A model generated the notes under the pieces. The model did no database searches, was not told where the DNA came from, and saw only the letters and a program-made list of their open reading frames with translations. A program made the translations under genes and the position numbers. Source: Methylophilales bacterium (GTDB taxonomy: Bacteria; Pseudomonadota; Gammaproteobacteria; Burkholderiales; Methylophilaceae). Taken from it: DNA of 40,542 bases. Shown here piece by piece: positions 17,528-40,542 of this stretch. The number at the start of each line of letters is the position of its first letter. The stretch's first letter is position 1. The stretch lies in assembly GCA_021414145.1 (NCBI GenBank), contig JAIOOY010000008.1, positions 1-40,542 of the forward strand, written 5' to 3'.

Positions 17528-18219
17528 CGCGTGAGCCCTTTGCCTTGGAAGAAAGCCATCGTAAAGTTGACCGCCAAAGCCAAAGCCACCAGCACCACGC
17601 CTAGAGCAATGCCCTGGGCAAACTCACCTTTGCTAGTTTCCAGCGCAATGGCTGTAGTGATGTTGCGCGTCACGCCGGCGATGTTGCCACCCACCATCAT
17701 GGCACAACCGATTTCCGACAACACTCGCCCAAAACCCGTAGTAATCGCCACCAGCACCGCGAAACGAGCTTCCAGCAACACCGTCCACATGGCTTGCATG
17801 CGGCCAGCTCCCAAGGTTTTGGCGGTTTCTGCGGCGCGTTTGTCCACAGACTGTACAGCGGAAAGCGTCATCGCGGCGAGTATAGGAAAGGCCAGCACGG
17901 CTTGACCGAGAATCATGGCCTGTTGCGTAAACAGCCAATGCCACGCGCCTAGCACGCCTTGGCGAGAGAGCAGCAGGTACATGATGAGGCCGATGACTAC
18001 TGTAGGCAGAGCTAACAGGGTTTGTAACAATACAACCAACACCCGCCGCCCAGGAAAAGTAAATGTGGCTAGCGCAAAACCCATCGCCACGGCTGGCGGT
18101 ACAGCACAGATAAGTGCCAATGTGGAGACGCGCAGCGATACGCCTATGATATTCCACAGCGCAGCATCACCACCCAGAAGCAATTCAAAAGCTTGTTGGG
18201 TGGCTTGCAGTAATGTCAT
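17524..18219 (-). CDS. tupB: tungstate ABC transporter permease
   Basis: Multi-TM permease with GAGRMQAMWTVLLEARFAVLVAITTGFGRVLSEIGCAMMVGGNI; 4-nt overlaps with both neighbours. Confidence 0.86.
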   Translation of the reverse strand: MTLLQATQQAFELLLGGDAALWNIIGVSLRVSTLALICAVPPAVAMGFALATFTFPGRRVLVVLLQTLLALPTVVIGLIMYLLLSRQGVLGAWHWLFTQQAMILGQAVLAFPILAAMTLSAVQSVDKRAAETAKTLGAGRMQAMWTVLLEARFAVLVAITTGFGRVLSEIGCAMMVGGNIAGVTRNITTAIALETSKGEFAQGIALGVVLVALALAVNFTMAFFQGKGLTR

Positions 18220-19028
18220 TTAGCCGATGGCGTGAACAGCTGCTCACCATCAACTTTGAAGCTCGCAATCAAGCTCTGCCCCTCTGCGGAAGTTATCCAG
18301 TTGATCAATTGCGTTGCGCCTTTATAGTTAGCATCTGGGAATTTCTTGGGATTGACCGCGATAATGCCGTAGGGATTGTACATCTTAGAATCGCCTTGTA
18401 CCAAAATCGGCAGACCTACCTTATCCTTGAAAGCCAGATAGGTGCCACGATCGGTTAGGGTGTAAGCACGCATTTCACCCGACATCATAAGTACTTCTCC
18501 CATACCCTGTCCCGCAGATACATACCAAGCACCCTGTGGTTTGGTATTTAACGCCTTCCAATAACTTTTTTCCATTTGGTCGGTGCCAGAATCGTCGCCG
18601 CGTGATACAAAGCGCCATTTCTTCTGGGATATTTTTTGCATAGCGGTCAGCACGTCTTTCTCACCATTGATTTTGGCAGGATCGTTATTTGGGCCAATCA
18701 GGATGAAGTCGTTGTACATCACGTCCTTGCGGTCTATACCGTGACCCGCCGCAACAAAAGCATCTTCGGCGGGGCGAGCATGTACCAGCACCACATCCAC
18801 ATTACCGTCTTCGCCTAGTTTCAGTGCTTTGCCACTACCCACAGAGATGACGTTGACCTTACAACTGCACTTGACCTCAAACTTAGGCAATAAGAAATCC
18901 AGCAAGCCAGAATTGGCTGTGCTAGTCGTCGTAGCAAGACGAATAAGACTTTTGTCGCCCGCAAAAGCTAAGGTGGTTGCAATGGCAAAACAAAAAGCTG
19001 TGACTATGGTTACGAAGCGTTTCATCAT
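18216..19028 (-). CDS. tupA: tungstate ABC transporter substrate-binding protein
   Basis: Signal peptide; IRLATTTSTANSGLLDFLLPKFE (TupA-type TTTS motif), FVSRGDDSGTDQMEKSYW. Confidence 0.88.
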   Translation of the reverse strand: MMKRFVTIVTAFCFAIATTLAFAGDKSLIRLATTTSTANSGLLDFLLPKFEVKCSCKVNVISVGSGKALKLGEDGNVDVVLVHARPAEDAFVAAGHGIDRKDVMYNDFILIGPNNDPAKINGEKDVLTAMQKISQKKWRFVSRGDDSGTDQMEKSYWKALNTKPQGAWYVSAGQGMGEVLMMSGEMRAYTLTDRGTYLAFKDKVGLPILVQGDSKMYNPYGIIAVNPKKFPDANYKGATQLINWITSAEGQSLIASFKVDGEQLFTPSAK

Positions 19029-19034
19029 TACCCC

Positions 19035-20516
19035 TTAGAAGTCGTACTGAGCACGGAAAGTCACTGCGTTCTCAGTGTTGCTGGATTTACTGTTGATGAT
19101 AATAGGCGTATCAAACTCAGTGTGGATGTAGTTAAGCACAATACGCGCGTTGGGTGTCATGATCCATTTGGCACCTGCTGTCCAAGCATCGGCTTGGTTG
19201 GTAAAGGATGCGGCGGCCGTAGGCGTAGTTAAACAACCTGTCCCTGCCACGCAACCGTTGGCCGAGGTAACAAAATCAGAAGCATCAAACAGGCTGTAAC
19301 GTAACCCTAGCTCTATTGCACCATAACCGCCTTTATCAATCGAGAAACTGGTTTTGGGTGTAATGCGCCCAAACATGCCGTCCTTGTAGGAATCAGCGTA
19401 ACTCTCACCCGTCACAAGCCAATTTACGTCAGCGTACCAAGCGTTGATATCCTTGTCGAAAGTCCTATTTGCCGTTGTCCTGCCGCTGTAATTGGCTCTG
19501 ATATACTCACTTTGCAACTTGACTGGACCATAGGCCAACGCGGTTTCCAATCCCCAGCGATCTTTATCAAGGTCGTCACCCGTAAAAGCCGCCGTAGAAA
19601 AGAATTTTGTTGCCACGGTACTGGAGGTTGCCAGAGTGTTGGTTGTAATGCCGTTAGATTCTGTATAGCCCGATAATGTGAGTGTACCAGTGGCGGTTGT
19701 AGGCTGAGACGTTCCACGACTAACCGTACCACCCATGTGTACCACGGCCTTATTCCATTCCGCCCAGTCCGCTACGTTAATCACCGCACGACCAATCACG
19801 TCTTTGTTATCTTTGGTATCGTCGTTATTTTGACCACTACCGTTGACGTAGGACAAGTTGTAATAGGTACCCTTGAACGGTGAGCCAAACAACATCACGC
19901 CACGGTCGTAGGTAGAATTAAAGATTGCGCCCGTGGCAGTAGCCATCGACAATTCCTGGAAATCAGTAAAATTCGTGCTCTGCGCACGCTCTAATCCGAA
20001 AACTGGTTTGAACTGACCGATACGTATCCGCGCACCCGGAAAGTGCTTGTATTCCACGTAACCATAGGTCATACCAACAGTTCCCTTGGAGCCATCATTG
20101 GTATTGGAATACTCGCCTTCCACTCTGAGTAGAAAATCTTTTAGAAAGGTGAATTGCGCTCCGAGACGGGCACGACGTATGGAAAAAGTGTCATTTTTCC
20201 ACACCGTAGGATCTATCGCACGGTAGTCAGCTTGGATACGCCCGTTGAGTTGCAACGACCAATTGCCGGTACCATCGTCCAACACCAACCCATCCTTGAA
20301 GGCGGCATACACAGCATTGCCCTTGCTTTTGCCCTTTTCATCCATTTTGGCATCTTTGGTTTGCGCCATCTGTTGTTGCACCGCCATAAGCTCTTCACTC
20401 AAAGCTTTTAGTTGCTTTTCCAGAGCCTCAATACGAGCCGCCGCGTCCACCTCATCAGCTATCGCATGCCCACTCAAGGCTAGCAATAGCGCCATCCACA
20501 TCCATTTTTTTTTCAT
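19035..20516 (-). CDS. OprO/OprP-like oxyanion porin
   Basis: Signal peptide MKKKWMWMALLLALSGHAIA, coiled-coil N-terminus, FLLRVEGEYSNTNDG..., GARIRIGQFKPVFGLERAQST, C-terminal aromatic FRAQYDF. Start at 20516 with RBS GGGGGGG. Confidence 0.85.
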   Translation of the reverse strand: MKKKWMWMALLLALSGHAIADEVDAAARIEALEKQLKALSEELMAVQQQMAQTKDAKMDEKGKSKGNAVYAAFKDGLVLDDGTGNWSLQLNGRIQADYRAIDPTVWKNDTFSIRRARLGAQFTFLKDFLLRVEGEYSNTNDGSKGTVGMTYGYVEYKHFPGARIRIGQFKPVFGLERAQSTNFTDFQELSMATATGAIFNSTYDRGVMLFGSPFKGTYYNLSYVNGSGQNNDDTKDNKDVIGRAVINVADWAEWNKAVVHMGGTVSRGTSQPTTATGTLTLSGYTESNGITTNTLATSSTVATKFFSTAAFTGDDLDKDRWGLETALAYGPVKLQSEYIRANYSGRTTANRTFDKDINAWYADVNWLVTGESYADSYKDGMFGRITPKTSFSIDKGGYGAIELGLRYSLFDASDFVTSANGCVAGTGCLTTPTAAASFTNQADAWTAGAKWIMTPNARIVLNYIHTEFDTPIIINSKSSNTENAVTFRAQYDF

Positions 20517-20538
20517 GTTTACCCCCCCGAATATATAA

Positions 20539-20563
20539 CGGTTGTATTTTATCCTATACATCG
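20539..20563. promoter_or_regulatory. imperfect inverted repeat upstream of porin-tup operon (candidate ModE-type operator)
   Basis: CGGTTGTAT-TTTATCCT-ATACATCG; CG(G)TTGTAT versus CGATGTAT arms (7/8 with one bulge). AT-rich, flanked by CG, just downstream of the modE-like gene. Confidence 0.4.
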
Positions 20564-20599
20564 AGAGATATGCATCAACAAATACAGCGGGGTTTGAAA

Positions 20600-20944
20600 T
20601 TACTTAGCGAGGAGCTTTAGAAGGGCGTGGAGGTCACTCTCAATATGTGCGGCGGCTTTACTCTCCAGCGCTTGATAGCGCCGCAATACATCTAGGCCAA
20701 ACGTGGTCAGCTGTGCGCCGCCACCTTGTGCGCCCCCAGTTGCCGTGCTGACCAACGGTTCAAGAAAGGCTTGATTCATGGTGGAAACCAAATCCCAGGC
20801 GCGCTTGTAGGACATCCCCATGGACTTTGCTGCGGCGGAAATGGAACCGTGCTTCACTATGGCGTCCAACAACACTGCTTTGCCAGGGCCGATGGCGGAG
20901 AGTTTGCCATAGGGGATACGGATTTTGATGTGTGGTTGACTCAT
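20600..20944 (-). CDS. ModE-like LysR-type winged-helix regulator, N-terminal domain only
   Basis: IRIPYGKLSAIGPGKAVLLDAIVKHGSISAAAKSMGMSYKRAWDLVSTMNQAF, TGGAQGGGAQLTTFG. ATG at 20944 with GAGGG RBS. Confidence 0.88.
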   Translation of the reverse strand: MSQPHIKIRIPYGKLSAIGPGKAVLLDAIVKHGSISAAAKSMGMSYKRAWDLVSTMNQAFLEPLVSTATGGAQGGGAQLTTFGLDVLRRYQALESKAAAHIESDLHALLKLLAK

Positions 20945-21034
20945 AGAATACCCTCGTTGAAAGCAGCGTTGTTTCACGACGCTTAAGCGCATAGAATGGT
21001 TATCTTAACGTAAATCAAGTAACACTTACATGTC

Positions 21035-22036
21035 ATGAATCAGTCAAACACATCACTGATAGATCAGTTTGGCCGCAAGGTGGACTACATTCGCTTGTCC
21101 ATCACCGACCGCTGCGATTTTCGATGTGTTTATTGCATGGCGGAAGACATGACGTTTTTGCCGCGCGATGAAGTGTTGACCTTGGAAGAGTGCGCGCGTC
21201 TGGTGCAGGTATTTGTGGGTTTGGGTGTGAGCAAAGTCCGTATTACAGGGGGCGAACCACTGGTGCGTAAAAATGCACTATGGCTGTTTCAGGAAATCGG
21301 TCAGTTGCCGGGTTTGAGAGAGTTGGTGACTACCACCAACGGTTCGCAACTAGAGCACATGGCCAAAGATTTGCGCGCCGCCAACGTGAGCCGCATCAAT
21401 ATCAGCGTGGATAGTCTGAATGCTGCGCGCTTCAAAAAAATCACCCGTACCGGCGACCTAGATAAAGTGCTACGCGGTTTACAAGCAGCCAAACAAGCTG
21501 GGTTTAAGGGCATCAAACTGAATACAGTGCTGATGCGCGGCTTCAATGATGACGAGGCAGAAAGCCTAGTTGAGTTCGCCGTGAACCAAGAAATTGACAT
21601 CGCCTTCATCGAGGAAATGCCACTTGGCGAAGTGGATCACACCCGCGAATCTACTTACGTCAGCAACGCCGACACTTTGGCGCGGCTGCAAAAACAATTC
21701 ACACTCGTCAGCAGCACCGAGAACACTGGCGGCCCGGCAAAATATTGGCGCATAGCGAATTCCCAAACCAAAATCGGTTTTATTTCACCGCATAGTCACA
21801 ACTTCTGTGAAGCCTGCAATCGCGTGCGAATTACTTGCAAGGGCGAGCTGTATTTGTGCTTGGGGCAGGAGGACAAAGTAGATTTAATGCCGCTGCTGCG
21901 TGAATACCCGCACGACGATCAGCCTTTACTCGAGGCCATTTTGCGCAGCATGAGCATTAAACCCAAAGGTCACGATTTCGATTTGCGCCGCGCGGAGCCA
22001 GCCGTCATAAGATTCATGTCCGTCACGGGGGGGTAA
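21035..22036 (+). CDS. moaA: GTP 3',8-cyclase MoaA
   Basis: DRCDFRCVYCMAEDMTFLPR radical SAM motif, C-terminal FCEACNRVRITCKGELYLCLG cluster motif and terminal GG. Confidence 0.97.
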   Translation: MNQSNTSLIDQFGRKVDYIRLSITDRCDFRCVYCMAEDMTFLPRDEVLTLEECARLVQVFVGLGVSKVRITGGEPLVRKNALWLFQEIGQLPGLRELVTTTNGSQLEHMAKDLRAANVSRINISVDSLNAARFKKITRTGDLDKVLRGLQAAKQAGFKGIKLNTVLMRGFNDDEAESLVEFAVNQEIDIAFIEEMPLGEVDHTRESTYVSNADTLARLQKQFTLVSSTENTGGPAKYWRIANSQTKIGFISPHSHNFCEACNRVRITCKGELYLCLGQEDKVDLMPLLREYPHDDQPLLEAILRSMSIKPKGHDFDLRRAEPAVIRFMSVTGG

Positions 22037-22043
22037 TTCACTT

Positions 22044-22853
22044 ATGGCATACAAGCCAACCCTCACCCACGCCAGCCGCCAAGCTACCTTCCCCGCCATT
22101 GCAATAGATGAAACTGGTGCTCAAGTGCCAGTGGAAATCGCAGGTGAACATCCTCTTACGTTGTACCTCGACAAGCGCGAAATCGTCACTCTGATGACCT
22201 TGGGTGACTCTCCGGAAGCATTGATTATTGGCTATCTACGCAATCAAAAGCTGGTCAGACAATTGGCGGATATCGTGTCAGTACAAGTGGATTGGGAAAC
22301 CAACGCGGTGGCGGTGACCACCAACACGCAAATTGACGACTTGGATGAGCGCTTAGGAAAGCGTACCGTCACCACTGGCTGCGGCCAAGGCACGGTGTTT
22401 GGAGACGTGATGGAACACATCAGCCACCTGACGCTGCCCAACGATGTCATGCTCAGCAACCAGACTTTGTACGCGCTGCTAGAAAACCTGCGCCACCACG
22501 ACACTTTGTATAAAAAAGCGGGCGCTTTGCACAGTTGCGCTTTAGCTAAAGATTCAGAAATCCTCTATCACGTGGAAGACGTAGGCCGTCACAACGCGGT
22601 GGATGCGATTGCGGGATTCATGTGGCTGGATAACGTGACTGGCGACGATAAAATCTTCTATACCACAGGACGCTTAACCTCAGAAATGGTCATCAAAGGG
22701 GCGCAGATGGGCATTCCTTTCATCGTCTCACGCTCCGGCATCACACAAATGGGCTATGAAGTGGCGCAAAAAGTGGGGATTACCTTGATAGGTCGCGCTA
22801 AAGGTTCTCATTACTTACTCTTCACGGGCGAGCATCGCTTTAAGCGCTTATGA
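22044..22853 (+). CDS. fdhD: formate dehydrogenase accessory sulfurtransferase FdhD
   Basis: LYLDKREIVTLMTLGDSPEALIIGYLRNQ, TVTTGCGQGTVFGD, HVEDVGRHNAVDAIAG, FYTTGRLTSEMVIKGAQMGIPFIVSRSG. Confidence 0.95.
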   Translation: MAYKPTLTHASRQATFPAIAIDETGAQVPVEIAGEHPLTLYLDKREIVTLMTLGDSPEALIIGYLRNQKLVRQLADIVSVQVDWETNAVAVTTNTQIDDLDERLGKRTVTTGCGQGTVFGDVMEHISHLTLPNDVMLSNQTLYALLENLRHHDTLYKKAGALHSCALAKDSEILYHVEDVGRHNAVDAIAGFMWLDNVTGDDKIFYTTGRLTSEMVIKGAQMGIPFIVSRSGITQMGYEVAQKVGITLIGRAKGSHYLLFTGEHRFKRL

Positions 22854-23416
22854 AAGTGACTGGTATCGTGTTGGCAGGAGGCCAAGGCCGCCGGATGGGG
22901 AACGTGGACAAGGGCTTGGTTATTCTCAATAGCAGGCCCATGGTGGCGCATGTGCTGGAACGCCTCGCGCCGCAGGTGGACGAAGTGCTGGTCAATGCCA
23001 ACCAAAACCTGGAGCAATATGCCGCATTTGGCTTTTCCGTAATTTCTGATAGTTTGATTGGCTACGCGGGTCCATTAGCCGGATTACAGGCAGGTTTGAG
23101 CGCTGCACAGCATGAATTGGTCGCTACCGTTCCCTGCGATTCTCCCTTCTTGCCGCTGGATTTAATCGCACGACTAAAAGCAGCATTGCTAGAACACCGC
23201 GCCCAGCTTGCCGTAGCGGTTACCCATAACCAACCACATCCAGTGTTTTGTTTGTGCCTGCGCAATGTCTTGCCACATCTCACTGCTTTTCTTGATAATG
23301 GCGGGCGAAAAATTGACGCGTGGTATGCCACGCTTAATACCGTAGAAGTCAATTTTGACGACGAAGTAGATGCTTTTATCAACATCAACACCATGCAAGA
23401 ACTAAAGAACCTCTAA
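22850..23416 (+). CDS. mobA: molybdenum cofactor guanylyltransferase
   Basis: VTGIVLAGGQGRRMGNVDKGLV, GPLAGLQAGLSAA, ATVPCDSPFLP. Confidence 0.95.
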   Translation: MKVTGIVLAGGQGRRMGNVDKGLVILNSRPMVAHVLERLAPQVDEVLVNANQNLEQYAAFGFSVISDSLIGYAGPLAGLQAGLSAAQHELVATVPCDSPFLPLDLIARLKAALLEHRAQLAVAVTHNQPHPVFCLCLRNVLPHLTAFLDNGGRKIDAWYATLNTVEVNFDDEVDAFININTMQELKNL

Positions 23417-23949
23417 TGAAATCAGAAACACCCTTACTCGGTTTTTGTGCCTATGGCAGCGGCATAGGCAAGACCACACTGCTTGCCAGCCTGATTCCTG
23501 AACTGGTTGCTGCGGGACTAAGGGTATCTGTCATCAAGCATGCGCACCACAGCTTTGACATTGACCACCCGGGTAAGGATAGCTATCGGTTGCGCGAAGC
23601 CGGTGCGGTTCAGATGCTACTCGGCTCCAGAAAAAGATGGGCGCTGATGACGGAACTTTCACGCACTGGCAATAATCATGAAGAACCGAGCTTGGCTGAG
23701 CTTTTACCACATGTGGACGGCAATTTGGTCGACCTGATTGTGGTTGAGGGTTTCAAGAGTGCACCTATTCCCAAGATTGAGATTTACCGGCCATCTTTGG
23801 GTAAACCCTTGCTAGCCGCAAGCGATTCGCACATCATCGCCATTGCAAGTGACGGCGCGGTGGTGAGCGGGGTACCTGTGCTGGACTTGAACAGGCCTGC
23901 AGCGATCGCACAATTTGTACTGCAATGGCTTAAAAAGGAATCATCATGA
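23416..23949 (+). CDS. mobB: molybdopterin-guanine dinucleotide biosynthesis protein MobB
   Basis: GFCAYGSGIGKTTLLASLIP P-loop, VIKHAHHSFDIDHPGKDSYRLREAGA, LIVVEGFKSAPIPKIEIYR. Confidence 0.94.
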   Translation: MKSETPLLGFCAYGSGIGKTTLLASLIPELVAAGLRVSVIKHAHHSFDIDHPGKDSYRLREAGAVQMLLGSRKRWALMTELSRTGNNHEEPSLAELLPHVDGNLVDLIVVEGFKSAPIPKIEIYRPSLGKPLLAASDSHIIAIASDGAVVSGVPVLDLNRPAAIAQFVLQWLKKESS

Positions 23950-25208
23950 CCCTAGACTTTATCGCCGCCAGTTGTGCGGATGACTACGATCCCAACTCGA
24001 TGAACGTGGATAAGGCGCGACATTTTATTCGTCAATACCTAAGTCCAATTCAGGCACAAGAGAGCTTGGCTTTGCGTTCAAGTTTAGGGCGCATTTTGGC
24101 GACGGATATTTTGTCGCCGTGCAATGTGCCTAACCACGACAATTCGGCGATGGATGGCTATGCATTTAATGGCGACGATATTGCGGCAGATACCACTACC
24201 AGTTTAAAAATTGTCGGTACGGCTTTTGCGGGCAAAGTGTTCGATGGAAAAGTAGAGCGCGGCCAGTGTGTAAGAATTATGACGGGTGCCGTGATGCCGG
24301 ATGCCACCGATAGCGTGATTCCACAAGAGCAAGCGCAAGTAGATGGCGAGAAAATCATGTTTGGCGCAGGGGCTAGACGTGGCCAACATCGGCGTTTTGC
24401 CGGCGAGGACTTGAAGTTGGGGCAAGTAGTGTTACCCACCGGACACCTGATACGCCCTGCCGACTTGGGGTTGGTAGCGTCGCTAGGCATATGCGAAGTC
24501 AAAGTCTATCGCAAACTGCGCGTAGCATTTTTCTCTACCGGAGACGAACTTTCCAGCATCGGCCAACAACTTGAATCCGGGCAAGTGTATGACAGTAACC
24601 GCTATACCATTTATGGCATGTTGGCGAGGCTGGGAGTCGAAATCATCGACATGGGCGTGGTACGCGACGACCCAGTGCTGCTGGAGCAGGCGCTCGTTAA
24701 CGCTTCAGAATCGGCTGATGTCGTGATCACTAGCGGCGGCGTCTCGGTGGGTGAAGCCGACTACATGAAAGAGCTGCTTAACAAGCGAGGCCAAGTGGTG
24801 TTCTGGAAGATCGCCATGAAACCGGGACGACCTTTGGCTTATGGCAAAATCGGCAATGCACACTATTTTGGTCTGCCGGGTAATCCGGTTTCGGTCATGG
24901 TTACTTTTTATCAGTTTGTACGCGACGCACTGCTAAACTTGATGGGGCAACCCCATCCCAGACCCATTCCACTATTTTCTGCCATCTGCGACGACGAAAT
25001 TCGCAAAGCCCCTGGCAGAACTGAATTTCAGCGAGGCGTGTTACATCAAGTTAACGATGACTGGCACGTCAAACTCACTGGAAATCAAGGCTCCGGGGTG
25101 CTAAGCTCCATGTCGGAAGCCAACTGTTTTGTGGTATTGGATGAAGCTTGCGGCAATATCGCGGCAGGTGCTTTGGTGCAAGTGCAATTGCTGGAAGGCT
25201 TGATTTAG
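23946..25208 (+). CDS. moeA: molybdopterin molybdenumtransferase MoeA
   Basis: NHDNSAMDGYAF, VRIMTGAVMPDATDSVIPQEQ, TSGGVSVGEADYMKELL, KPGRPLAYGKIGNAHYFGLPGNPVSVMVTF. Confidence 0.96.
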   Translation: MTLDFIAASCADDYDPNSMNVDKARHFIRQYLSPIQAQESLALRSSLGRILATDILSPCNVPNHDNSAMDGYAFNGDDIAADTTTSLKIVGTAFAGKVFDGKVERGQCVRIMTGAVMPDATDSVIPQEQAQVDGEKIMFGAGARRGQHRRFAGEDLKLGQVVLPTGHLIRPADLGLVASLGICEVKVYRKLRVAFFSTGDELSSIGQQLESGQVYDSNRYTIYGMLARLGVEIIDMGVVRDDPVLLEQALVNASESADVVITSGGVSVGEADYMKELLNKRGQVVFWKIAMKPGRPLAYGKIGNAHYFGLPGNPVSVMVTFYQFVRDALLNLMGQPHPRPIPLFSAICDDEIRKAPGRTEFQRGVLHQVNDDWHVKLTGNQGSGVLSSMSEANCFVVLDEACGNIAAGALVQVQLLEGLI

Positions 25209-28536: not shown

Positions 28537-28640
28537 CATTTGCAGTCAATTGAACTTTTGCACCCATTTGTGACTCAAGTTACAGATGTCCACTGAAGCT
28601 TACAACACACTACCTTGGCAGAAAAAATATGGAGAATGTC

Positions 28641-29438
28641 ATGCGTAACACCCGATTGACCTTGGTGACTCTGGCTTTGAGCTTCCTCACTATGGCAAAT
28701 ACTGCTAGTGCCGAAGCCAACCCGGAACTATGGTCAGTACTCAAGCAAAGCTTCTTCGGCAGTAAAAACATAGAGCCTGCCGACTTCATTAAACTAGATG
28801 GCCCCAAACGCGCTGAGAGCGGTGCCCAAGTGCCAATTACGCTGACCATCAGTAAACCGCAAGACACGCCGGATGCCATCAAAAAAGTTTATCTTTTTGT
28901 GGATGCCAACCCAATCCCGCTCACTGCCACTTACTATTTCACGCCTCTTAACGGTAAAGTCGAGCTCGCTACACGCATACGCATGGAGGTAGATTCTTAC
29001 ATCCACGCCGTAGGAGAAACCGCAGATGGCAAACTTTATGTTACTGACGTGGCGATTCGTGCTGCTGGTGGCTGCGGCGGTAGCGTAGATGGCGATGAAA
29101 CAGCGATTCGTGCCGCTTCCGGCAAGATGAAAGTGCATGTAGAGTCCCCTGTGAAATTCGGCGAACCTACGCCCGTCACCTTTCTCATCAAACACCCCAT
29201 GTACACTGGCCTACAGCGTGATCTCGTCTCTGGCGGTTACAAGCCTGCCTTTTTTATGCACAAAGTCGCGTTCACCTATAACAAAAATCCCGTGATGCAT
29301 GTGGACTTTGGTGTAGGTGTGGCGGAAGACCCCTACATGCGTTTTTCTTACCTGCCGGAAGGCCCGGGAACGCTAGAGGTAAGCGCCACAGACAATGAAG
29401 GTAAGACGTTTACTCATCAGCTTGAAGTGGCTAACTAA
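28641..29438 (+). CDS. secreted fused SoxYZ-like carrier (quinoprotein dehydrogenase-associated type)
   Basis: Signal peptide MRNTRLTLVTLALSFLTMANTASA; SoxY-like domain ending in AAGGCGGSVDGD, followed by a SoxZ-like domain (HPMYTGLQRDLVSGGYKPAFFMHKVAFTYNKNPVMHVDFGVGVAEDPYMRFSYLP). Confidence 0.87.
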   Translation: MRNTRLTLVTLALSFLTMANTASAEANPELWSVLKQSFFGSKNIEPADFIKLDGPKRAESGAQVPITLTISKPQDTPDAIKKVYLFVDANPIPLTATYYFTPLNGKVELATRIRMEVDSYIHAVGETADGKLYVTDVAIRAAGGCGGSVDGDETAIRAASGKMKVHVESPVKFGEPTPVTFLIKHPMYTGLQRDLVSGGYKPAFFMHKVAFTYNKNPVMHVDFGVGVAEDPYMRFSYLPEGPGTLEVSATDNEGKTFTHQLEVAN

Positions 29439-29460
29439 ATCGGCAAGCACCCAATAAAAA

Positions 29461-29486
29461 AGGGCGCTGTCAGCGCCCTTTTTTAT
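29461..29486. terminator. bidirectional rho-independent terminator between soxYZ-like and cyt b561
   Basis: AAAAA-AGGGCGCT-GTC-AGCGCCCT-TTTTTATTTT: perfect 8-bp stem, A-tract 5' and T-tract 3', between convergent genes. Confidence 0.92.
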
Positions 29487-29500
29487 TTTCTGTACTCTGG

Positions 29501-30100
29501 TTAGCTACAGCTTGTCATGCGTCCCATCACTTCGTCCTTATCCACGAATTTGTGTTTGAGCGCGGCCAGCACATGTATCCCAATCAAGGTAATCAAAATA
29601 ACCGCTATAGTTTCATGTGTTTCTTTGAACACTGAGCGTATAGCCTCATTATCCAGTCCCTTAATAAAATCCATACCGAACAATTTCACACCATACTTGC
29701 TGTAGGTCGCCATGATAAGTCCGCTCAGTGGCATCAAAAACATCAGCATATACAGCAAATGGTGCGATGCGCTAGCTGCCTTTCTTTGCCATCCAACGAT
29801 GCTTGCAGGAAGTGCTGGCGCTTTGTGCGTAACCTTCCAGTAGATGCGGAACAACACCAGTGCAAAGACAATCACTCCGAATGATTTATGCAGATTAAAG
29901 TAATAACTTCTAGGTGAAATCGCCTCTGATAACTGCACCATATAAATTCCCAAATCAAACAAATCAAATGAGGCTACTTTAGGTGCATCCTTGGGTAAGT
30001 CTGCCATAAACCAACCGACGGTAAACATGCCAAATATCATCAATGCAATCAGCCAATGCAACATAATGGCCACCTTGGTATAGCGTTGCGTATTGCTCAC
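29501..30100 (-). CDS. cytochrome b561 family protein
   Basis: RYTKVAIMLHWLIALMIFGMFTVGWFM, LHKSFGVIVFALVLFRIYWK, SHHLLYMLMFLMPLSGLIM, THETIAVILITLIGIHVLAALKHKFV: four TM segments with His ligands. Confidence 0.92.
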   Translation of the reverse strand: MSNTQRYTKVAIMLHWLIALMIFGMFTVGWFMADLPKDAPKVASFDLFDLGIYMVQLSEAISPRSYYFNLHKSFGVIVFALVLFRIYWKVTHKAPALPASIVGWQRKAASASHHLLYMLMFLMPLSGLIMATYSKYGVKLFGMDFIKGLDNEAIRSVFKETHETIAVILITLIGIHVLAALKHKFVDKDEVMGRMTSCS

Positions 30101-30216
30101 TTGTAATACTCCTCAATAAAAACCGAATGGGTGAATCTTAGCGCATGTAGAATTGTCGTAATGTCTGTTCACTAAAAAGACATCATTTTGTAATCTTAGT
30201 TCATGAAAGCACTCTT

Positions 30217-31125
30217 ATGCTATACCGTCTAGTCACCTTGCTTTTATTTATTTCTACCAGCGTATACGCTGATCCATTAACGATGAAAGAAGTTGCCGAA
30301 GGAGTGTTCATCCACCAAGGTGCGCATGAAGAATTGGATGAAGGCTATCACGGCGACATCGCCAATATCGGCTTTGTGGTAGGTAACGACGCGGTGGCGG
30401 TGATAGATACTGGCGGCAGCAAACAAGTGGGCGACAGGCTGCGCGAGGCGATTGTTAAAGTCACGGCACTACCCATACGCTTTGTCATCAATACCCACAT
30501 TCACCCCGACCACGTGTTCGGCAATGCCTCTTTTGTGCAAGACAAACCAGAGTTTATCGGTCACGCCAAACTGGGCGACGCGATGGAGTTGCGTCGTGAT
30601 ATTTACATCAAAAATAATACTGATGTACTCGGCGCAGCCTTTGCTGGCAGCGCATTGATCAAGCCCACAAAGGCCGTCAGTGACACTTTGGAGATTGATT
30701 TAGGCGGGCGCAACCTGCAACTTAAAGCTTGGTCAACCGCACACACCAACACCGATCTAACCGTATTCGACGAAGGCTCCAGTACGCTGTGGACAGGCGA
30801 CCTGCTGTTTGTTGAGCGTACCCCCGCTATGGATGGTGACACTCGTAATTGGCTCAAGCTCATCCCGCAACTCAAAGCCATACCCGCCAAATTGGCCGTG
30901 CCTGGACACGGTACCGCTACACCTCAATGGCAAGCCGCGTTTGATAAGGAACAACATTATTTTGAGGTGGTATTGGCTGATATCCGCGCCAACATTGCCA
31001 AAGGCGTCACCATGGAAAAAACCATGGATAGTGCCGCCACCAGTGAAAAGGGCAATTGGGTACTATTCAACTCGGTAAATCGGCGCAATATCAATCTGCT
31101 GTATCCGCAACTGGAGTGGGAATAG
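30217..31125 (+). CDS. secreted metallo-beta-lactamase-fold hydrolase (SoxH-related / quinoprotein relay type)
   Basis: Signal peptide; FVINTHIHPDHVFGN, HTNTDLTVFDEGSSTLWTGDLLFVERTPAMDGDTRNW, VPGHGTATPQW. Confidence 0.87.
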   Translation: MLYRLVTLLLFISTSVYADPLTMKEVAEGVFIHQGAHEELDEGYHGDIANIGFVVGNDAVAVIDTGGSKQVGDRLREAIVKVTALPIRFVINTHIHPDHVFGNASFVQDKPEFIGHAKLGDAMELRRDIYIKNNTDVLGAAFAGSALIKPTKAVSDTLEIDLGGRNLQLKAWSTAHTNTDLTVFDEGSSTLWTGDLLFVERTPAMDGDTRNWLKLIPQLKAIPAKLAVPGHGTATPQWQAAFDKEQHYFEVVLADIRANIAKGVTMEKTMDSAATSEKGNWVLFNSVNRRNINLLYPQLEWE

Positions 31126-31165: not shown

Positions 31166-31960
31166 ATGTCATACGCAACGGAACCCTTGATGGAGAACGC
31201 ACAGCGCCAGAGTGATTTCATACTCATCGCGCTACTAATTTCTATTGGCTTACACAGCACGGCGATTGGCTTTTTGCCGGGGTTTGGTAAATCTCCTGCC
31301 CCGCTGACCCCGCCGCCACTGACAGTAGAACTGGTGACTCCAGAAGCACCTCCCCCTCCGCCACCCATTAAAGAACCTGAACCCGAGAAACCACAGCCTA
31401 AACCGGAACCAAAACCAACGCCTGTTTCACAACCACCAAAACCCGCTCCGGTACAGAAAGTGCTAACGCCTGAACCGCCTCCAACATCGTCGCCACGGAA
31501 TGAGCCACCGCCCACACCGGCAGCCGAAACTGCAAAACCTGTGGAACCTTCACCCCAACCAGTGATAGCAGTAGAGCAAAAATTTAACGAGCCACCACCC
31601 ACATCTACTGTGTCAGCGCAAACCCCAGTTGCTCCGCAAGAGTCTGACGCAAACCACAAAGCCGCCATTGTTGGTTACGGCAATCAACTAACCACGGAGA
31701 TGTCAAAAAACCAGAACTATCCCAAGCGCGCAAAAGAAAAAAACTGGACAGGTAAGGGCAGGATTTTATTGAAATACGATCCGAAGTCTAAAAAATTCAG
31801 CTATGTCATCTCGCAAACCAGTGGCAGAGCTATATTAGACGACGATGCGAAGCAAAATCTGCAAAATGCGCTGAGTTCGGTACCGCCTACTGGGCTGGTT
31901 GCGGACATCCCGTTCGAAGTCGAAATTCCCTTTGTCTACAGGCTAGAAATCTCTCAGTAA
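31166..31960 (+). CDS. TonB-family energy transducer
   Basis: N-terminal TM segment, long Pro/Glu/Lys-rich spacer (EAPPPPPPIKEPEPEKPQPKPEPKPTP), C-terminal TonB-like domain (NYPKRAKEKNWTGKGRILLKYDPKSKKF...FEVEIPFVYRLE). Confidence 0.82.
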   Translation: MSYATEPLMENAQRQSDFILIALLISIGLHSTAIGFLPGFGKSPAPLTPPPLTVELVTPEAPPPPPPIKEPEPEKPQPKPEPKPTPVSQPPKPAPVQKVLTPEPPPTSSPRNEPPPTPAAETAKPVEPSPQPVIAVEQKFNEPPPTSTVSAQTPVAPQESDANHKAAIVGYGNQLTTEMSKNQNYPKRAKEKNWTGKGRILLKYDPKSKKFSYVISQTSGRAILDDDAKQNLQNALSSVPPTGLVADIPFEVEIPFVYRLEISQ

Positions 31961-35372: not shown

Positions 35373-36545
35373 GTGAATCGCGGTTTTTACACCATCCTCG
35401 CGGCTCAATTCCTCTCCGCCTTGGCTGACAACGCGCTGCTGTTTGCAGCTATTGCGCTGTTACAAGAAATTTCCGCTCCCGCTTGGCACACCCCCCTGCT
35501 ACAGATGTTTTTCATCATCGCCTATATCATATTGGCACCCTTTGTCGGCTCATTCGCCGATGCCCTGCCCAAAGGGCGCGTGATGTTTATTTCCAACGCA
35601 ATCAAGTTCGTTGGTTGCCTTGCCATGTGGGCGGGTCTGCAACCCTTATACGCTTATGGCATAGTAGGTATTGGTGCAGCGGCATATTCTCCGGCTAAAT
35701 ATGGAATTCTGACCGAAATTTTACCTCCTGATTTACTAGTGAAGGCCAATGGATGGATGGAAGGCACTACTGTCGCCGCGATTATTCTAGGTGCCATATT
35801 AGGCGGCCAACTGGCCAGCATCAGTCCTCACGTTGCCTTGCTCGCTATCGTGGGGCTGTATTTGGCAGCCGCTGGATTTAATCTGTATATCCCCAAGCTG
35901 GCCATAGATCACAAGGTGGCAGAGCGTAATCCATTCTATTTAATACGCGACTTCTGGGTCTCTTTCACCACTTTGTGGCGGGACGAACAAGGCCAAGTCT
36001 CATTGGCTGTTACCACACTGTTTTGGGGTGCAGGAGCCACTATGCGCCTAGTCGTCATAGCCTGGGCAGCGGCCGCATTAAATTTTGGCTTGGAACATGC
36101 CACACAGCTGACTGCAACTGTTGCCTTAGGCATTGCCTTTGGTGCGGTATTTGCCGCGCGTTATGTCAAGCTTGAGGAATCAGTAAAAGTTTTACCAGCG
36201 GGCATAGCTATGGGAGTTCTGGTGATGAGCATGGTATTTTTGCGCGACTGGCATATCGCCGCGTTGATCTTATTTATGGTAGGTGCGCTTTCCGGCTATT
36301 TTGTGGTACCTCTCAATGCCTTGTTACAACACCGCGGGCATTTATTGATAGGCGCTGGACACTCTATCGCGGTGCAAAACTTCAATGAGAACATCGGCAT
36401 CTTACTGATGACACTACTTTATACTTTAATGGTCAGAGCAGAATTCCCCGTTTTCTGGACAGTGGTCATATTTGGTGCGTTTGTGAGCCTGACCATGACC
36501 GGCATCTATCTACGTTACCGTAAATTACCCGCGAATATATCCTAG
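35373..36545 (+). CDS. lplT: lysophospholipid transporter LplT-like MFS protein
   Basis: FYTILAAQFLSALADNALLFAAIALL, AYSPAKYGILTEILPPDLLVKANGWMEGTTVAAIILG, NALLQHRGHLLIGAGHSIAVQNFNEN. Confidence 0.92.
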   Translation: MNRGFYTILAAQFLSALADNALLFAAIALLQEISAPAWHTPLLQMFFIIAYIILAPFVGSFADALPKGRVMFISNAIKFVGCLAMWAGLQPLYAYGIVGIGAAAYSPAKYGILTEILPPDLLVKANGWMEGTTVAAIILGAILGGQLASISPHVALLAIVGLYLAAAGFNLYIPKLAIDHKVAERNPFYLIRDFWVSFTTLWRDEQGQVSLAVTTLFWGAGATMRLVVIAWAAAALNFGLEHATQLTATVALGIAFGAVFAARYVKLEESVKVLPAGIAMGVLVMSMVFLRDWHIAALILFMVGALSGYFVVPLNALLQHRGHLLIGAGHSIAVQNFNENIGILLMTLLYTLMVRAEFPVFWTVVIFGAFVSLTMTGIYLRYRKLPANIS

Positions 36546-37888
36546 TGCAGCTTGACGTGAGGAGATGTACGTCGTGTGATTATTCTCGCAATAGTGTCCA
36601 ATATAACCTTGCTCAGTCCGTGCAGAGCGTAAAGATGCATTTTGTATAGCATCCGGTACATAAAGCCAGCAAAAGTACCCTGAATAAACAATGCACCCCC
36701 TGTCAACCCACCCATCAAATTGCCTACCGTACTATATTTACCGAGATTGACCAAAGATCCGAAATCCCGATAGATATATTCCGGAAGCTTTGTTTCACCT
36801 TTCACCCGTAGCTTGAAAGATTTTAATAACATCGATGCTTGCTGATGGGCTGATTGCGCTCGCGGTGGCACCAGCATGTCACGACCAAGTGCATCTTTGT
36901 GCCCATTCCAAACGCAAGCTGCGCAATCCCCTAAGGCAAAGATATTGTCATCTCGCGTGGTTTGCAAGGTTGGTTTGACCATCAACTGGTTAGCCCAATT
37001 GGTTTCCAGTCCATCGATATCTTTCAGAAAATCTGGGGCTTTAATGCCGGCAGCCCACACAACCAGAGCAGCAGGAACCAGACGGCCACTTTCGGTGTGC
37101 ACTCCTTTCGAATCAACGCGAGTGACTTTTTCTCCTAGTTCCAGCTGGACGTCGAGCTTTCTGAGTTGTTTCTGTACTTCAAGAGAAATATCTTCGGGCA
37201 AAGCTGGTAGTACCCTAGGAGCCGCCTCGATAATGCTCAGCTTGACATCACGGTCAGGGTCAACGTTGTCTAGGCCATAGGCCGCTAGCTGTCTTGTTGT
37301 ATTATGTAGCTCCGCAGCCAGTTCTACACCGGTTGCACCACCTCCGATGATGGCAACATTCAGATGCCCCTGGTTAGTCACCCCCACTTGCGTGCGGATA
37401 CAGGCATTAACCAGCTTGCGATGGAACATAGCTGCCTCAGATTGTGTATCAAGTGATACCGCAAACTCTTGTACTCCCGGGATGCCGAAATCGTTGGAGA
37501 CACTACCTATGGCAATAACCAACGTGTCATAGTGGATATTCCGAATGGGAATCAGCACTTTTCCATCATCGTCAAAAGTAGGCGAAACACGTATTTGCTG
37601 GTTTTTTCTGTCTATGCCCTCAAGTGCTCCGAGGCGGAAATTGAAATGATGCCAGTGAGCCTGCGCAATGTAATCCAGCTCATGTTGATCTAGATCCATG
37701 CTGCCCGCTGCGACCTCGTGTAGCAAAGGTTTCCACAAATGGGTTGGGTACTTGTCAACAAGGGTCACCATCGCCTTGCCACGTTTACCTAATGTATTTC
37801 CCAAACGAGTTGCCAGTTCTAGGCCACCAGCCCCGCCGCCGACCACTACAATTTTATGTAGGGATTCAGTATTTTTATCAATAGTCAT
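36542..37888 (-). CDS. type II NADH dehydrogenase (NDH-2-like NAD(P)/FAD oxidoreductase)
   Basis: KIVVVGGGAGGLELATRLG, TLVDKYPTHLWKPLLHEVAAG, VAIIGGGATGVELAAEL, FALGDCAACVW, PPRAQSAHQQA. Confidence 0.9.
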   Translation of the reverse strand: MTIDKNTESLHKIVVVGGGAGGLELATRLGNTLGKRGKAMVTLVDKYPTHLWKPLLHEVAAGSMDLDQHELDYIAQAHWHHFNFRLGALEGIDRKNQQIRVSPTFDDDGKVLIPIRNIHYDTLVIAIGSVSNDFGIPGVQEFAVSLDTQSEAAMFHRKLVNACIRTQVGVTNQGHLNVAIIGGGATGVELAAELHNTTRQLAAYGLDNVDPDRDVKLSIIEAAPRVLPALPEDISLEVQKQLRKLDVQLELGEKVTRVDSKGVHTESGRLVPAALVVWAAGIKAPDFLKDIDGLETNWANQLMVKPTLQTTRDDNIFALGDCAACVWNGHKDALGRDMLVPPRAQSAHQQASMLLKSFKLRVKGETKLPEYIYRDFGSLVNLGKYSTVGNLMGGLTGGALFIQGTFAGFMYRMLYKMHLYALHGLSKVILDTIARIITRRTSPHVKLH

Positions 37889-37988: not shown

Positions 37989-38582
37989 TTATTTTAACCA
38001 GGTTTTCTCGCCATCGCCTTTATATTCGGTACGAATATAAGCAATCACCTTCAAAATATCATCCGTGGATAAGCCGTCACCGGTGTGGTCTGGAAGCTGA
38101 ACATGCCAGATAAACATGGTGCCGCCTGATGTTCCAGGAGTGCCTCCAGCGATAGTCTCAAACATACCCTTATCGGTAGCATTCTTGGCGTAGACCCACT
38201 TTTGATCAAATGCGCCTTGACCACCCTGAGTATTTTTGCTCAAAGAAGGTGCCATGATGCCTTCCAACTTGCCACCGTGGCAACCCATGCAGTTGTTAAA
38301 GGTAAATACTTTTCTACCCGCTTTTGCTGCCTCAGCATCTGCTGCATATACTTTGGTGTATGGGTTTACGCAAGTTGCGAGAAATTCCTTCGCTTGCGGC
38401 GTATCTTTATCGGATACCTTTATGGCTAAAGGGCTATCATCTTTAGTGGAGACTAGCTTGCACTCCCCAGAAGTGCTCGCTGATTTGGCTTCACCCCCCG
38501 CAACAGAACCTTCGCCGCCTTTGCTACAAGCAGTGAGTGCTGCGAGTACCAGAGTCAATACGATGAATTTGATGTATTGCAT
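37989..38582 (-). CDS. lipoprotein class I cytochrome c, paralog of XoxG/cytochrome cL
   Basis: Lipobox LTACSKGG after a TM-like signal; NNCMGCHGGKLEGIMAPSLSK heme motif; near-identical C-terminus to the upstream cytochrome. Confidence 0.9.
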   Translation of the reverse strand: MQYIKFIVLTLVLAALTACSKGGEGSVAGGEAKSASTSGECKLVSTKDDSPLAIKVSDKDTPQAKEFLATCVNPYTKVYAADAEAAKAGRKVFTFNNCMGCHGGKLEGIMAPSLSKNTQGGQGAFDQKWVYAKNATDKGMFETIAGGTPGTSGGTMFIWHVQLPDHTGDGLSTDDILKVIAYIRTEYKGDGEKTWLK

Positions 38583-38636
38583 ATTATTTCCCCCTAGAAA
38601 TTAGCTTTAAGCTTTATAAATTCTTGTCTGCAAACA

Positions 38637-38667
38637 AGAAAGCGGCCATTGCTCGCACAATGACCGC
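38637..38667 (-). terminator. rho-independent terminator after the soluble cytochrome c gene (repeat of the 37936-37967 element)
   Basis: Minus strand GCGGTCATTG-TGCGAG-CAATGGCCGC-TTTCTTG; same sequence family as the element after the neighbouring cytochrome. Confidence 0.78.
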
Positions 38668-38690
38668 TTACTTAATTATAACTACCAGCG

Positions 38691-39254
38691 TTATTTCAAC
38701 CAAGTCTTTTCGCCATCACCATGGTATTCACTACGAATATAGGCAATCAGCTTTAATATCTCATCTGTGGTTAAACCGTCACCAGTGTGGTCTGGTAACT
38801 GATTGTGCCAGATAAACATTGTGCCACCAGAAGCACCTGGAGTACCACCTGCGATGGTTTCGAACATGCCCTTATCAGTAGCATTTTTTGCATAAACCCA
38901 TTTTGTATCGAATGCGCCTTGGCCACCAAATTTACTCAGCGACGGTGCCATAATCCCTTCTAACTTACCGCCATGGCAACCAGAACAGCCGTTATAACCA
39001 AATAGCTTTTTGCCTCCGGGTTTAATCAAAGATGGGTCTTTTGCATAAGCTTTTGTATAAGGGTTAACGCATGTTTCCAGAAACTCTTTCGCTTCTGCGC
39101 TATCGGTATCGGTAACCTTAATGGCTAACGGACTACCATCTTTGGTGGACTCCAATTTGCATTCTGCGGCAGCATTACCACTGAACACCATTGCGCCACT
39201 TATCACCAAGGCTGACAAAATCAACCGAGCCTGCACTAATTTGTTACTAATCAT
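38691..39254 (-). CDS. xoxG: periplasmic cytochrome c, XoxG/cytochrome cL-type
   Basis: Cleavable signal peptide ...VFSGNAAAECK; GYNGCSGCHGGKLEGIMAPSLSK; directly downstream of xoxJ and xoxF. Confidence 0.85.
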   Translation of the reverse strand: MISNKLVQARLILSALVISGAMVFSGNAAAECKLESTKDGSPLAIKVTDTDSAEAKEFLETCVNPYTKAYAKDPSLIKPGGKKLFGYNGCSGCHGGKLEGIMAPSLSKFGGQGAFDTKWVYAKNATDKGMFETIAGGTPGASGGTMFIWHNQLPDHTGDGLTTDEILKLIAYIRSEYHGDGEKTWLK

Positions 39255-39353
39255 GTCCTCTCCTCGTTTTGGGTTACTTCACATAATAAGCGGCTCAATG
39301 AACCACTATTTCACAACGAACTACCACCAGCTTGGTTGACAAGCTGGTGTCCG

Positions 39354-40271
39354 TTATTCGGTTTTTGGGATAGCTTCTCCACGTGATTCGTGTTGATCTT
39401 TTTTATAGACCTTCTCTACACTGTCACCTTCAACTACGGGTACATGAGGAATTCCATAATCATCCAGAATCTTCAAAATATCCGCTTGACGGCGGTCAAG
39501 TGCACCTTGAATCATCGCCATGCGTTCCTTGTCTTTTTTACGTACCGCTACTGAGATATTCCAGAACTCCTTACCTTTTGCATTCTTATTTTCATACTCT
39601 GGAATTTGCACAACGGTCAAAGGAATCTTGGCTTGCTTCGCATAATAACCCCCGATAGGTCCCCACACAATCGCCACATCAATGTCGCCCTTAACCAAGT
39701 CGTCAATCAAGAAACTGGCGGGCAAATTCAAATCACGCTGCATACGATATGGCCTGGAGTTCTCCATCAGACCATGATCAGCCAAAGGTCTAGTCGCTGG
39801 GCTTTCCTGAATAATGCCGATGAGACCTTTGTGTAAATCTTGGGAATCCCAATCCTTGATGTCGTAGCCACTATCTTTTCTAAACACAAACACATGTCCA
39901 GAACGATAATAAGGTTTAGACGTAAGCAATGCATCATTATCTGAGGTGGTGCTCATGATCACGTCACAACGATGTGCATTCAACGTATTACGTATGAATC
40001 CCATACGATCAAACCAAAACTGATAAGTCAGTTTTTTTCCTAAATCTTTTGCAATCAGTTCTGCAATTTTATTTTCAAAACCTTCTCGTTCTTTGTTGGA
40101 ATACGGCAGGTTGGCCGGATCGGCACACACCTTAAATTCAGTTGGGTCGTCAACACGTGTAGCTTCACCGCCTCGCCCAGAATTAAGATCAAAATCCAGT
40201 CCATCTTCAGCAAACGCCACGTTCACGGTGAGCAACAGCAGCAACAGAGTTACATTAATTTTCTTTAACAT
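39354..40271 (-). CDS. xoxJ: XoxJ/MoxJ-like periplasmic substrate-binding protein (quinoprotein dehydrogenase-associated)
   Basis: FKVCADPANLPYSNKEREGFENKIAELIAKDLGKKLTYQFWFDRMGFIRNTLNAHRCDVIMSTTSDNDALLTSKPYYRSGHVFVFR. ATG at 40271 fits the AAGGA RBS; the ORF-track start at 40316 is probably too early. Confidence 0.9.
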   Translation of the reverse strand: MLKKINVTLLLLLLTVNVAFAEDGLDFDLNSGRGGEATRVDDPTEFKVCADPANLPYSNKEREGFENKIAELIAKDLGKKLTYQFWFDRMGFIRNTLNAHRCDVIMSTTSDNDALLTSKPYYRSGHVFVFRKDSGYDIKDWDSQDLHKGLIGIIQESPATRPLADHGLMENSRPYRMQRDLNLPASFLIDDLVKGDIDVAIVWGPIGGYYAKQAKIPLTVVQIPEYENKNAKGKEFWNISVAVRKKDKERMAMIQGALDRRQADILKILDDYGIPHVPVVEGDSVEKVYKKDQHESRGEAIPKTE

Positions 40272-40321
40272 TTTCATTCCTTCGTCGTTAATGAGTCGCA
40301 CATTTACCCAGCACATATAAA

Positions 40322-40403: not shown

Positions 40404-40542
40404 TTACAGAGAGAACACGGTCAGTGCACCGCCGCCAGGAGCAGCGTTGTACTTCGTCAGTTCTGCATAACCACCAGCAGCGCCAAGAGCGTCTGTTGGG
40501 TTAGTCATACCAAGGTTCATCGCCACGCCAGCCCAACCGCCG
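40404..40542 (-). CDS. xoxF: PQQ-dependent methanol/alcohol dehydrogenase XoxF-like, C-terminal end only (runs off window)
   Basis: My translation of the minus strand: GGWAGVAMNLGMTNPTDALGAAGGYAELTKYNAAPGGGALTVFSL*. GGWAGV...LTVF is characteristic of the quinoprotein MDH C-terminus. Not in the ORF track because it is truncated. Confidence 0.88.
   Translation of the reverse strand, partial: GGWAGVAMNLGMTNPTDALGAAGGYAELTKYNAAPGGGALTVFSL

What the first reader, a model, noticed from the sequence alone, without database searches (positions are those of the whole stretch)
28641..31125. SoxYZ-fusion / cytochrome b561 / secreted MBL relay set near the xox cluster
A secreted fused SoxY-SoxZ carrier, a cytochrome b561 and a secreted metallo-beta-lactamase-fold protein sit together with no soxA, soxX, soxB or soxCD in the window, so this is not a normal thiosulfate-oxidation locus. 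Protein families named 'quinoprotein dehydrogenase-associated SoxYZ-like carrier' and 'quinoprotein relay system zinc metallohydrolase' are known from PQQ-dehydrogenase genomes, but their substrate and chemistry are, to my knowledge, not established. A xoxF-xoxJ-xoxG cluster lies about 8 kb away. Hypothesis: a covalent thiol-carrier relay moves a product or toxic intermediate (for example an aldehyde) to the MBL hydrolase, with cytochrome b561 handling electrons.
Basis: partly seen in the sequence, partly recalled or inferred. Interest (0 to 1): 0.78.

Follow-up and report, generated by a model that had tools for sequence, protein, structure and literature searches.

The report
Thiol carrier–hydrolase pair beside xoxF
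This is the methylotroph version of a known but functionally unsolved pair of exported proteins, a cysteine-bearing carrier and a zinc hydrolase; across 168 genomes the carrier was found only where a PQQ alcohol dehydrogenase is present, so it probably services those enzymes and not sulfur oxidation.

Summary
The fused carrier is TIGR04557 (239 bits, cut-off 140) and the MBL is TIGR04559 (400 bits, cut-off 280). A b561 gene lies between them on the other strand. They sit about 8 kb from xoxG-xoxJ, and the contig ends inside xoxF. No sox gene was found in the window and no soxB in the 72%-complete genome.

In 168 genomes of the class (nearly all from different families) the carrier occurs in 19. 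All 19 have a PQQ alcohol dehydrogenase (p=1e-17); there is no link to soxB (6/19, p=0.46). It never occurred where the only such dehydrogenases were haem-fused ones. Those seven still have the adjacent-cysteine pair, so the published disulfide-maturation idea looks weak. The rhodanese-like CXXCW protein is not general (2/19). b561 is a family-specific neighbour. SoxH-like MBLs follow SoxYZ carriers in both sulfur oxidisers and PQQ users, so I infer that the MBL acts on a carrier-bound adduct. The cargo, aldehyde-derived or sulfur, is unproven.

Families and context are known, so this is a new member of a known kind. By-product: an unannotated four-cysteine exported protein in 17/168 genomes, all with these dehydrogenases and 15 with the carrier.

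The parts
28629..29438 (+). Fused SoxY-SoxZ-like carrier with signal peptide; single mature cysteine Cys149 in ...AAGGCGG...; TIGR04557
   Evidence: Cys149 invariant in A1 (36/36) and A4 (58/58), GG(A)C kept in 117/117 fetched carriers; aligned with the C-terminal GGCG of Thermus SoxY 4uwq; AF2 mean pLDDT 88, cysteine loop 70-78
29501..30100 (-). Prokaryotic cytochrome b561 (PF01292), convergent with the carrier and divergent from the MBL; neighbour specific to this bacterial family
   Evidence: six His conserved in 10/10 family members; adjacency
30217..31125 (+). Exported zinc metallo-beta-lactamase-fold hydrolase, TIGR04559 'quinoprotein relay system zinc metallohydrolase 2', with the full HxHxDH...H176...D195...H231 ligand set
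   Evidence: H94, D98, D195, H231 invariant and H96, H99, H176 at 90% or more in A3; AF2 pLDDT 95.4; nearest solved folds 8d2z, chlorothalonil dehalogenase 6uxu, alkylsulfatase SdsA1
31166..31960 (+). TonB-like protein, about 40 bp downstream of the MBL; context
   Evidence: same order in L271-L273
33488..33943 (+). PrxQ-type peroxiredoxin; context; also near the carrier in five methanotroph loci
36542..37888 (-). NDH-2-like FAD pyridine nucleotide-disulfide oxidoreductase; context; next to the carrier/MBL genes in L040, L233, L237, L240
37989..38582 (-). cytochrome cL / XoxG-like
   Evidence: TIGR03872 77 bits (below cut-off 147.8)
38691..39254 (-). second c-type cytochrome of the xox cluster
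39354..40316 (-). XoxJ-like periplasmic binding protein
40404..40541 (-). C-terminal end of XoxF, cut by the contig end; the full gene in the same genus (L271) carries the Ln-type WDYDG motif

Best explanation
The carrier and the MBL form a two-protein, periplasmic carrier-plus-hydrolase module dedicated to haem-free, mostly lanthanide-type PQQ alcohol dehydrogenases such as XoxF. It is a relative of the Sox carrier machinery recruited away from thiosulfate. Proposed working: Cys149, on a flexible loop between the SoxY and SoxZ halves, is loaded with a group arising at or near the dehydrogenase. The dehydrogenase or its cytochrome would take the place of SoxXA as loader. The exported zinc MBL hydrolyses the carrier-bound adduct and frees the thiol, as SoxB does in the Sox cycle. 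The likeliest cargo is aldehyde-derived: aldehyde plus Cys-SH gives a hemithioacetal, oxidation gives an S-acyl (for methanol, S-formyl) thioester, and hydrolysis gives the acid; this would guard against product aldehyde or trim its leak, not carry the main flux. Shown here: families, conserved cysteine and zinc ligands, strict genomic tie to these dehydrogenases, no tie to soxB. Inferred: that the MBL acts on the carrier. Conjecture: the cargo. b561 is an accessory of this family only.
For: (1) 19/19 carrier genomes have a PQQ alcohol dehydrogenase, 30/168 overall, p=1e-17; 15/15 for TIGR04559; the other four carrier genomes have a TIGR04558-like MBL next to the carrier. (2) No link to SoxB: 6/19 vs 65/149, p=0.46; in the family 23/25 have the carrier above cut-off and 1/25 have SoxB. 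(3) All 18 carrier genomes whose dehydrogenases could be read have a D-x-D (Ln-type) enzyme; 7/7 genomes with only haem-fused type enzymes lack the carrier; p=2e-4. (4) SoxH-like MBLs track SoxYZ carriers generally: outside the PQQ-carrier genomes 45/51 MBL genomes have SoxB, p=5e-16; this points to a carrier-bound substrate. (5) Cys149 and the MBL metal ligands are conserved. (6) Neighbours: xoxF/xoxJ in many loci, NAD-linked (probably formate) dehydrogenase in methanotrophs, fae/mch and tetrahydromethanopterin genes in Azospirillum, pqqBCDE in Phyllobacterium.
Against: No adduct, activity or interaction has been measured. Four genomes with Ln-type enzymes lack the carrier (G026, G128, G145, G156). 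G181 keeps the carrier, cysteine intact, with no TIGR04559 hit; G176 has the MBL with no fused-carrier hit. XoxF in M. extorquens releases lethal formaldehyde in a fae mutant (PMC7391723). The cysteine is followed by a linker and the SoxZ half, not free at a chain end as in SoxY, so reaching a buried PQQ pocket may be hard. The top fold matches of the MBL are not thioesterases.
Confidence: 0.4

Rival explanations
1. Sulfur guard: the carrier binds sulfane or sulfite-type sulfur and the MBL removes it, so that sulfur nucleophiles do not form adducts with PQQ.
For: Ancestry is the Sox carrier; the 2026 ped review proposes this alternative and cites methanol-growth inhibition by thiosulfate in H. 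denitrificans (PMC12997753); H. denitrificans has a YeeE-like transporter pair beside its Sox(YZ) fusion and soxH (PMC11582611); alkylsulfatases are among the nearest folds of the MBL.
Against: No SoxXA-like loader is known for it and SoxB does not co-occur; haem-fused PQQ enzymes, whose PQQ should be equally exposed, go without the carrier; the authors of PMC11582611 found no evidence that the transporter pair serves sulfur oxidation.
Confidence: 0.25
2. Maturation: the set forms or repairs the adjacent-cysteine disulfide of the dehydrogenase, or stabilises its cofactor.
For: Proposed in PMC12997753 from gene context (rhodanese-like and thioredoxin-like neighbours); Phyllobacterium has thioredoxin, CXXCW and pqq genes in the same stretch.
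Against: Seven genomes with only haem-fused type enzymes, and four with Ln-type enzymes, lack the carrier but keep the adjacent CC; CXXCW occurs in only 2/19 carrier genomes; META1p1703-1705 are not among the 28 genes hit four or more times in the screen for XoxF-dependent formaldehyde production, while xoxG, xoxJ, pqq and cytochrome c maturation genes are (PMC7391723).
Confidence: 0.15
3. Redox signalling or electron sink: b561, carrier and the neighbouring kinase sense the periplasmic redox state; the carrier thiol is a sensor.
For: b561, TonB, HAMP histidine kinase and PrxQ lie beside the set in several genera of the family.
Against: b561 is almost never a neighbour outside the family, and in other family members b561 stays with the MBL when the carrier has moved (L266-L268, L270).
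Confidence: 0.08
4. Relic: inherited neighbours without a function in methanol oxidation.
For: Weak RB-TnSeq effects in P. putida without lanthanides (PMC12997753).
Against: Cysteine and zinc ligands conserved across families and classes, and exact nesting with PQQ dehydrogenases.
Confidence: 0.04

Closest known systems
TIGR04557 / TIGR04559 (NCBIfam quinoprotein dehydrogenase-associated SoxYZ-like carrier; quinoprotein relay system zinc metallohydrolase 2)
   Same: Both proteins exceed the curated cut-offs; same architecture, export signals and company
   Different: b561 between the two genes on the opposite strand, a layout of this bacterial family; not co-transcribed
P. putida ped cluster PP_2677/PP_2678 (with PP_2666) and M. 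extorquens META1p1703-1705
   Same: Fused SoxYZ plus SoxH-like MBL near Ln-type PQQ dehydrogenases (PMC12997753)
   Different: No CXXCW protein (the family to which I assign PP_2666, from memory) found in this genome
Sox thiosulfate system (SoxYZ, SoxB, SoxH)
   Same: Both folds and the carrier cysteine; SoxH-like MBL accompanies SoxB-type genomes too
   Different: No SoxB found; carrier fused, cysteine internal; below the true SoxY/SoxZ cut-offs
Glutathione-dependent formaldehyde oxidation (S-hydroxymethyl to S-formyl thiol, then hydrolase)
   Same: Only the proposed logic: thiol carrier, oxidation, thioester hydrolysis
   Different: Different proteins and compartment; analogy, not homology; chemistry unproven

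Membership tests
TIGR04557 SoxYZ-like carrier | score over curated cut-off across the whole model | tested here: met
   239.1 bits vs 140, model 1-226/226
TIGR04557 SoxYZ-like carrier | SoxY and SoxZ fused with the conserved cysteine between them | tested here: met
TIGR04557 SoxYZ-like carrier | PQQ dehydrogenase in the genome | tested here: met
   PQQ dehydrogenase hits in G000 and XoxF C-terminus at the window end
TIGR04559 metallohydrolase 2 | score over cut-off | tested here: met
   400 bits vs 280
TIGR04559 metallohydrolase 2 | complete metal site | tested here: met
TIGR04559 metallohydrolase 2 | hydrolysis of a carrier adduct | not testable with these tools
   no assay
Sox thiosulfate-oxidation system | true SoxY / SoxZ cut-offs | tested here: not met
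   87.6/125 and 69.3/76 for the window protein; met only by the second, unfused pair on C2
Sox thiosulfate-oxidation system | SoxB in the genome | tested here: not met
   absent in G000 (72% complete) and in 24/25 family genomes
Sox thiosulfate-oxidation system | SoxA, SoxX, SoxC, SoxD | tested here: inconclusive
   not among the scanned window ORFs; not searched genome-wide
Thiol-relay for aldehydes | aldehyde-derived adduct on Cys149 | not testable with these tools
   needs mass spectrometry

The most novel reading that the evidence does not exclude
A protein-borne, periplasmic counterpart of glutathione-dependent aldehyde oxidation: lanthanide PQQ dehydrogenases load product aldehyde onto the carrier cysteine and oxidise it to a thioester, and the SoxH-like MBL releases the acid. 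The unannotated four-cysteine protein found with XoxF and the carrier would be a further component in most lineages.
Probability: 0.2. Interest if true: 0.8.

Novelty: new member of a known kind. Interest (0 to 1): 0.45.

Why it matters
XoxF-type enzymes carry much of environmental methanol oxidation, yet a two-protein module that, wherever it was found in 168 genomes, accompanies a PQQ alcohol dehydrogenase has no known function. The comparisons here weaken one published idea (disulfide maturation), separate the core pair from occasional neighbours (b561, CXXCW), and name the genomes and residues on which a direct test can be run.

Tried and rejected
Canonical thiosulfate locus: rejected by profile scores and absence of SoxB. 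b561 as a core electron partner: only one b561 hit in about 100 loci from other families. CXXCW rhodanese as a third core part: 2/19. Adjacent-cysteine disulfide maturation: weakened, since seven carrier-free genomes with only haem-fused type enzymes have CC. Three dehydrogenases first seemed to lack CC and the D-x-D motif; they had been read on the wrong strand and have both CC and the aspartates. NDH-like neighbour as a sulfide:quinone reductase: best solved matches are NDH-2. A first profile scan of genome contigs failed because the alignment was too diverse; a narrower one worked. PMC12276312 on methanol dehydrogenase assembly is not held. PMC11520305, PMC12482762 and PMC11996626 gave no hit for the search terms used. 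Carrier fold search recovers SoxY and SoxZ domains only singly.

Full report
What is there. The window is contig C101 of a 1.45 Mb draft genome, 72% complete. ORFs at 28629-29438 (+), 29501-30100 (-) and 30217-31125 (+) encode a fused SoxY-SoxZ protein, a cytochrome b561 and an MBL-fold protein. NCBIfam puts the first in TIGR04557 (239 bits, cut-off 140) and the third in TIGR04559 (400 bits, cut-off 280); true SoxY and SoxZ models stay below their cut-offs. The xox genes at 37989-40316 are followed by the last 45 residues of XoxF at 40404-40541, where the contig breaks. The scanned window ORFs include no sox gene.

Who carries it. The same-family genomes (25 with this one; in my judgement Methylophilaceae, from a methylotrophic Burkholderiales-order context, not proved by name) have the carrier above cut-off in 23, TIGR04559 in 24, PQQ dehydrogenase in 25 and SoxB in 1. 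In 168 genomes of the class, nearly all from different families, the full-length carrier occurs in 19. All 19 have TIGR03075 dehydrogenases, against 30 overall (Fisher p=1e-17); SoxB shows no association (6/19, p=0.46). A further group of fused proteins scoring about 140 bits or less with the same model was left out; several of those genomes have SoxB.

Which dehydrogenases. I read the metal-site motif and the adjacent-cysteine pair in the enzymes of the 30 positive genomes. The 18 carrier genomes with readable enzymes all have a D-x-D type. The 11 without carrier split: seven have only WDYTA/WDFSA-type enzymes (in G015 and G149 also further paralogues), of which one per genome was checked and has a C-terminal CxxCH haem motif, and four have D-x-D enzymes. 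All seven checked haem-fused enzymes still have CC, so forming that pair does not need this module. The carrier is also found in an mxa cluster (L175), so the link is not strictly to lanthanide enzymes.

Carrier and MBL. The carrier cysteine is invariant (36/36 and 58/58 in two alignments; motif kept in 117/117 fetched carriers) and aligns with the terminal GGCG of SoxY, but here it lies on a loop before the SoxZ half (AF2 pLDDT 70-78 in the loop, over 90 in most flanking blocks). The MBL has the full metal-ligand set and a confident model (95.4); nearest folds are an uncharacterised MBL, chlorothalonil dehalogenase and alkylsulfatases. Weaker SoxH-like MBLs elsewhere track SoxB (45/51 outside the PQQ-carrier genomes, p=5e-16). 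The common denominator of the MBL is therefore a SoxYZ-type carrier, which is my main ground for proposing a carrier-bound substrate. That is inference.

b561. It is contiguous with carrier and MBL in 14 family genomes; in four others it stays with the MBL while the carrier has moved, and in one it stays with the carrier. Outside the family one locus has a b561 hit, about 7 kb from the carrier. The layout FlhA-carrier-b561-MBL-TonB-kinase-PrxQ-PhoH-LplT-NDH-xoxG-cyt-xoxJ-xoxF recurs, whole or nearly so, in several genera (L271-L274).

Fourth player. A 110-130 residue exported protein with four invariant cysteines, without Pfam or NCBIfam match, lies near the carrier, MBL or xoxF in 21 loci. 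In the 168 genomes it occurs in 17, all dehydrogenase-positive (p=1e-15), 15 with the carrier, two with xoxF and no carrier. It is also next to MBL/carrier in Azospirillum, Phyllobacterium and S. meliloti pSymB. It was not seen in the window or in the fetched loci of this family.

Literature. The 2026 ped review (PMC12997753) names the pair and offers two hypotheses, disulfide/cofactor maturation and PQQ protection from sulfur. PMC11582611 describes the Sox(YZ)-SoxH set of H. denitrificans as part of a PQQ alcohol-oxidation ensemble. In the M. extorquens screen (PMC7391723) the homologues named by the review are not among the 28 recurrent genes.

Verdict. A genuine, ordinary member of a known but unsolved module. 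The mechanism I favour, hydrolysis of a carrier-bound adduct that is most likely aldehyde-derived, rests on distribution and conserved residues; cargo and reaction remain to be shown.

Noticed in passing
L159:9470-9826 (-); also L160, L161, L162, L171, L204, L209, L218-L220, L231, L235, L241, L243-L245, L248, L256, L278, L279, L280: Unannotated exported protein (N-D-F/Y-P-T...C...CxC...C, four invariant Cys), no Pfam or NCBIfam match, beside xoxF or the SoxYZ-like carrier in Gamma- and Alphaproteobacteria; 17/168 class genomes, all with PQQ alcohol dehydrogenase.
   Followed up: partly
G000:C2:21300-22070 (L002:1360-2114): Canonical-scoring but orphan SoxY-SoxZ pair, beside an M48-like peptidase and a fused EutB-EutC-like gene, in a genome without detected SoxB; similar unfused pairs occur in many family members, only one of which has SoxB.
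   Followed up: partly
L188, L190, L194-L197, L204, L206, L209, L228: In many methanotroph loci a divergent LysR gene and a NuoE/F-like subunit of an NAD-linked dehydrogenase, probably formate dehydrogenase, sit directly beside the MBL-carrier pair.
   Followed up: no
L029-L039: A separate group of fused SoxYZ-like proteins scoring about 140 bits, near the TIGR04557 cut-off, mostly in genomes without PQQ alcohol dehydrogenase and several with SoxB; the curated cut-off does not separate them cleanly.
   Followed up: no
window 16880-20992: Tungstate-type ABC transporter (TupABC-like), porin and ModE-type regulator next to moaA-fdhD-mobAB-moeA (21035-25208).
   Followed up: no
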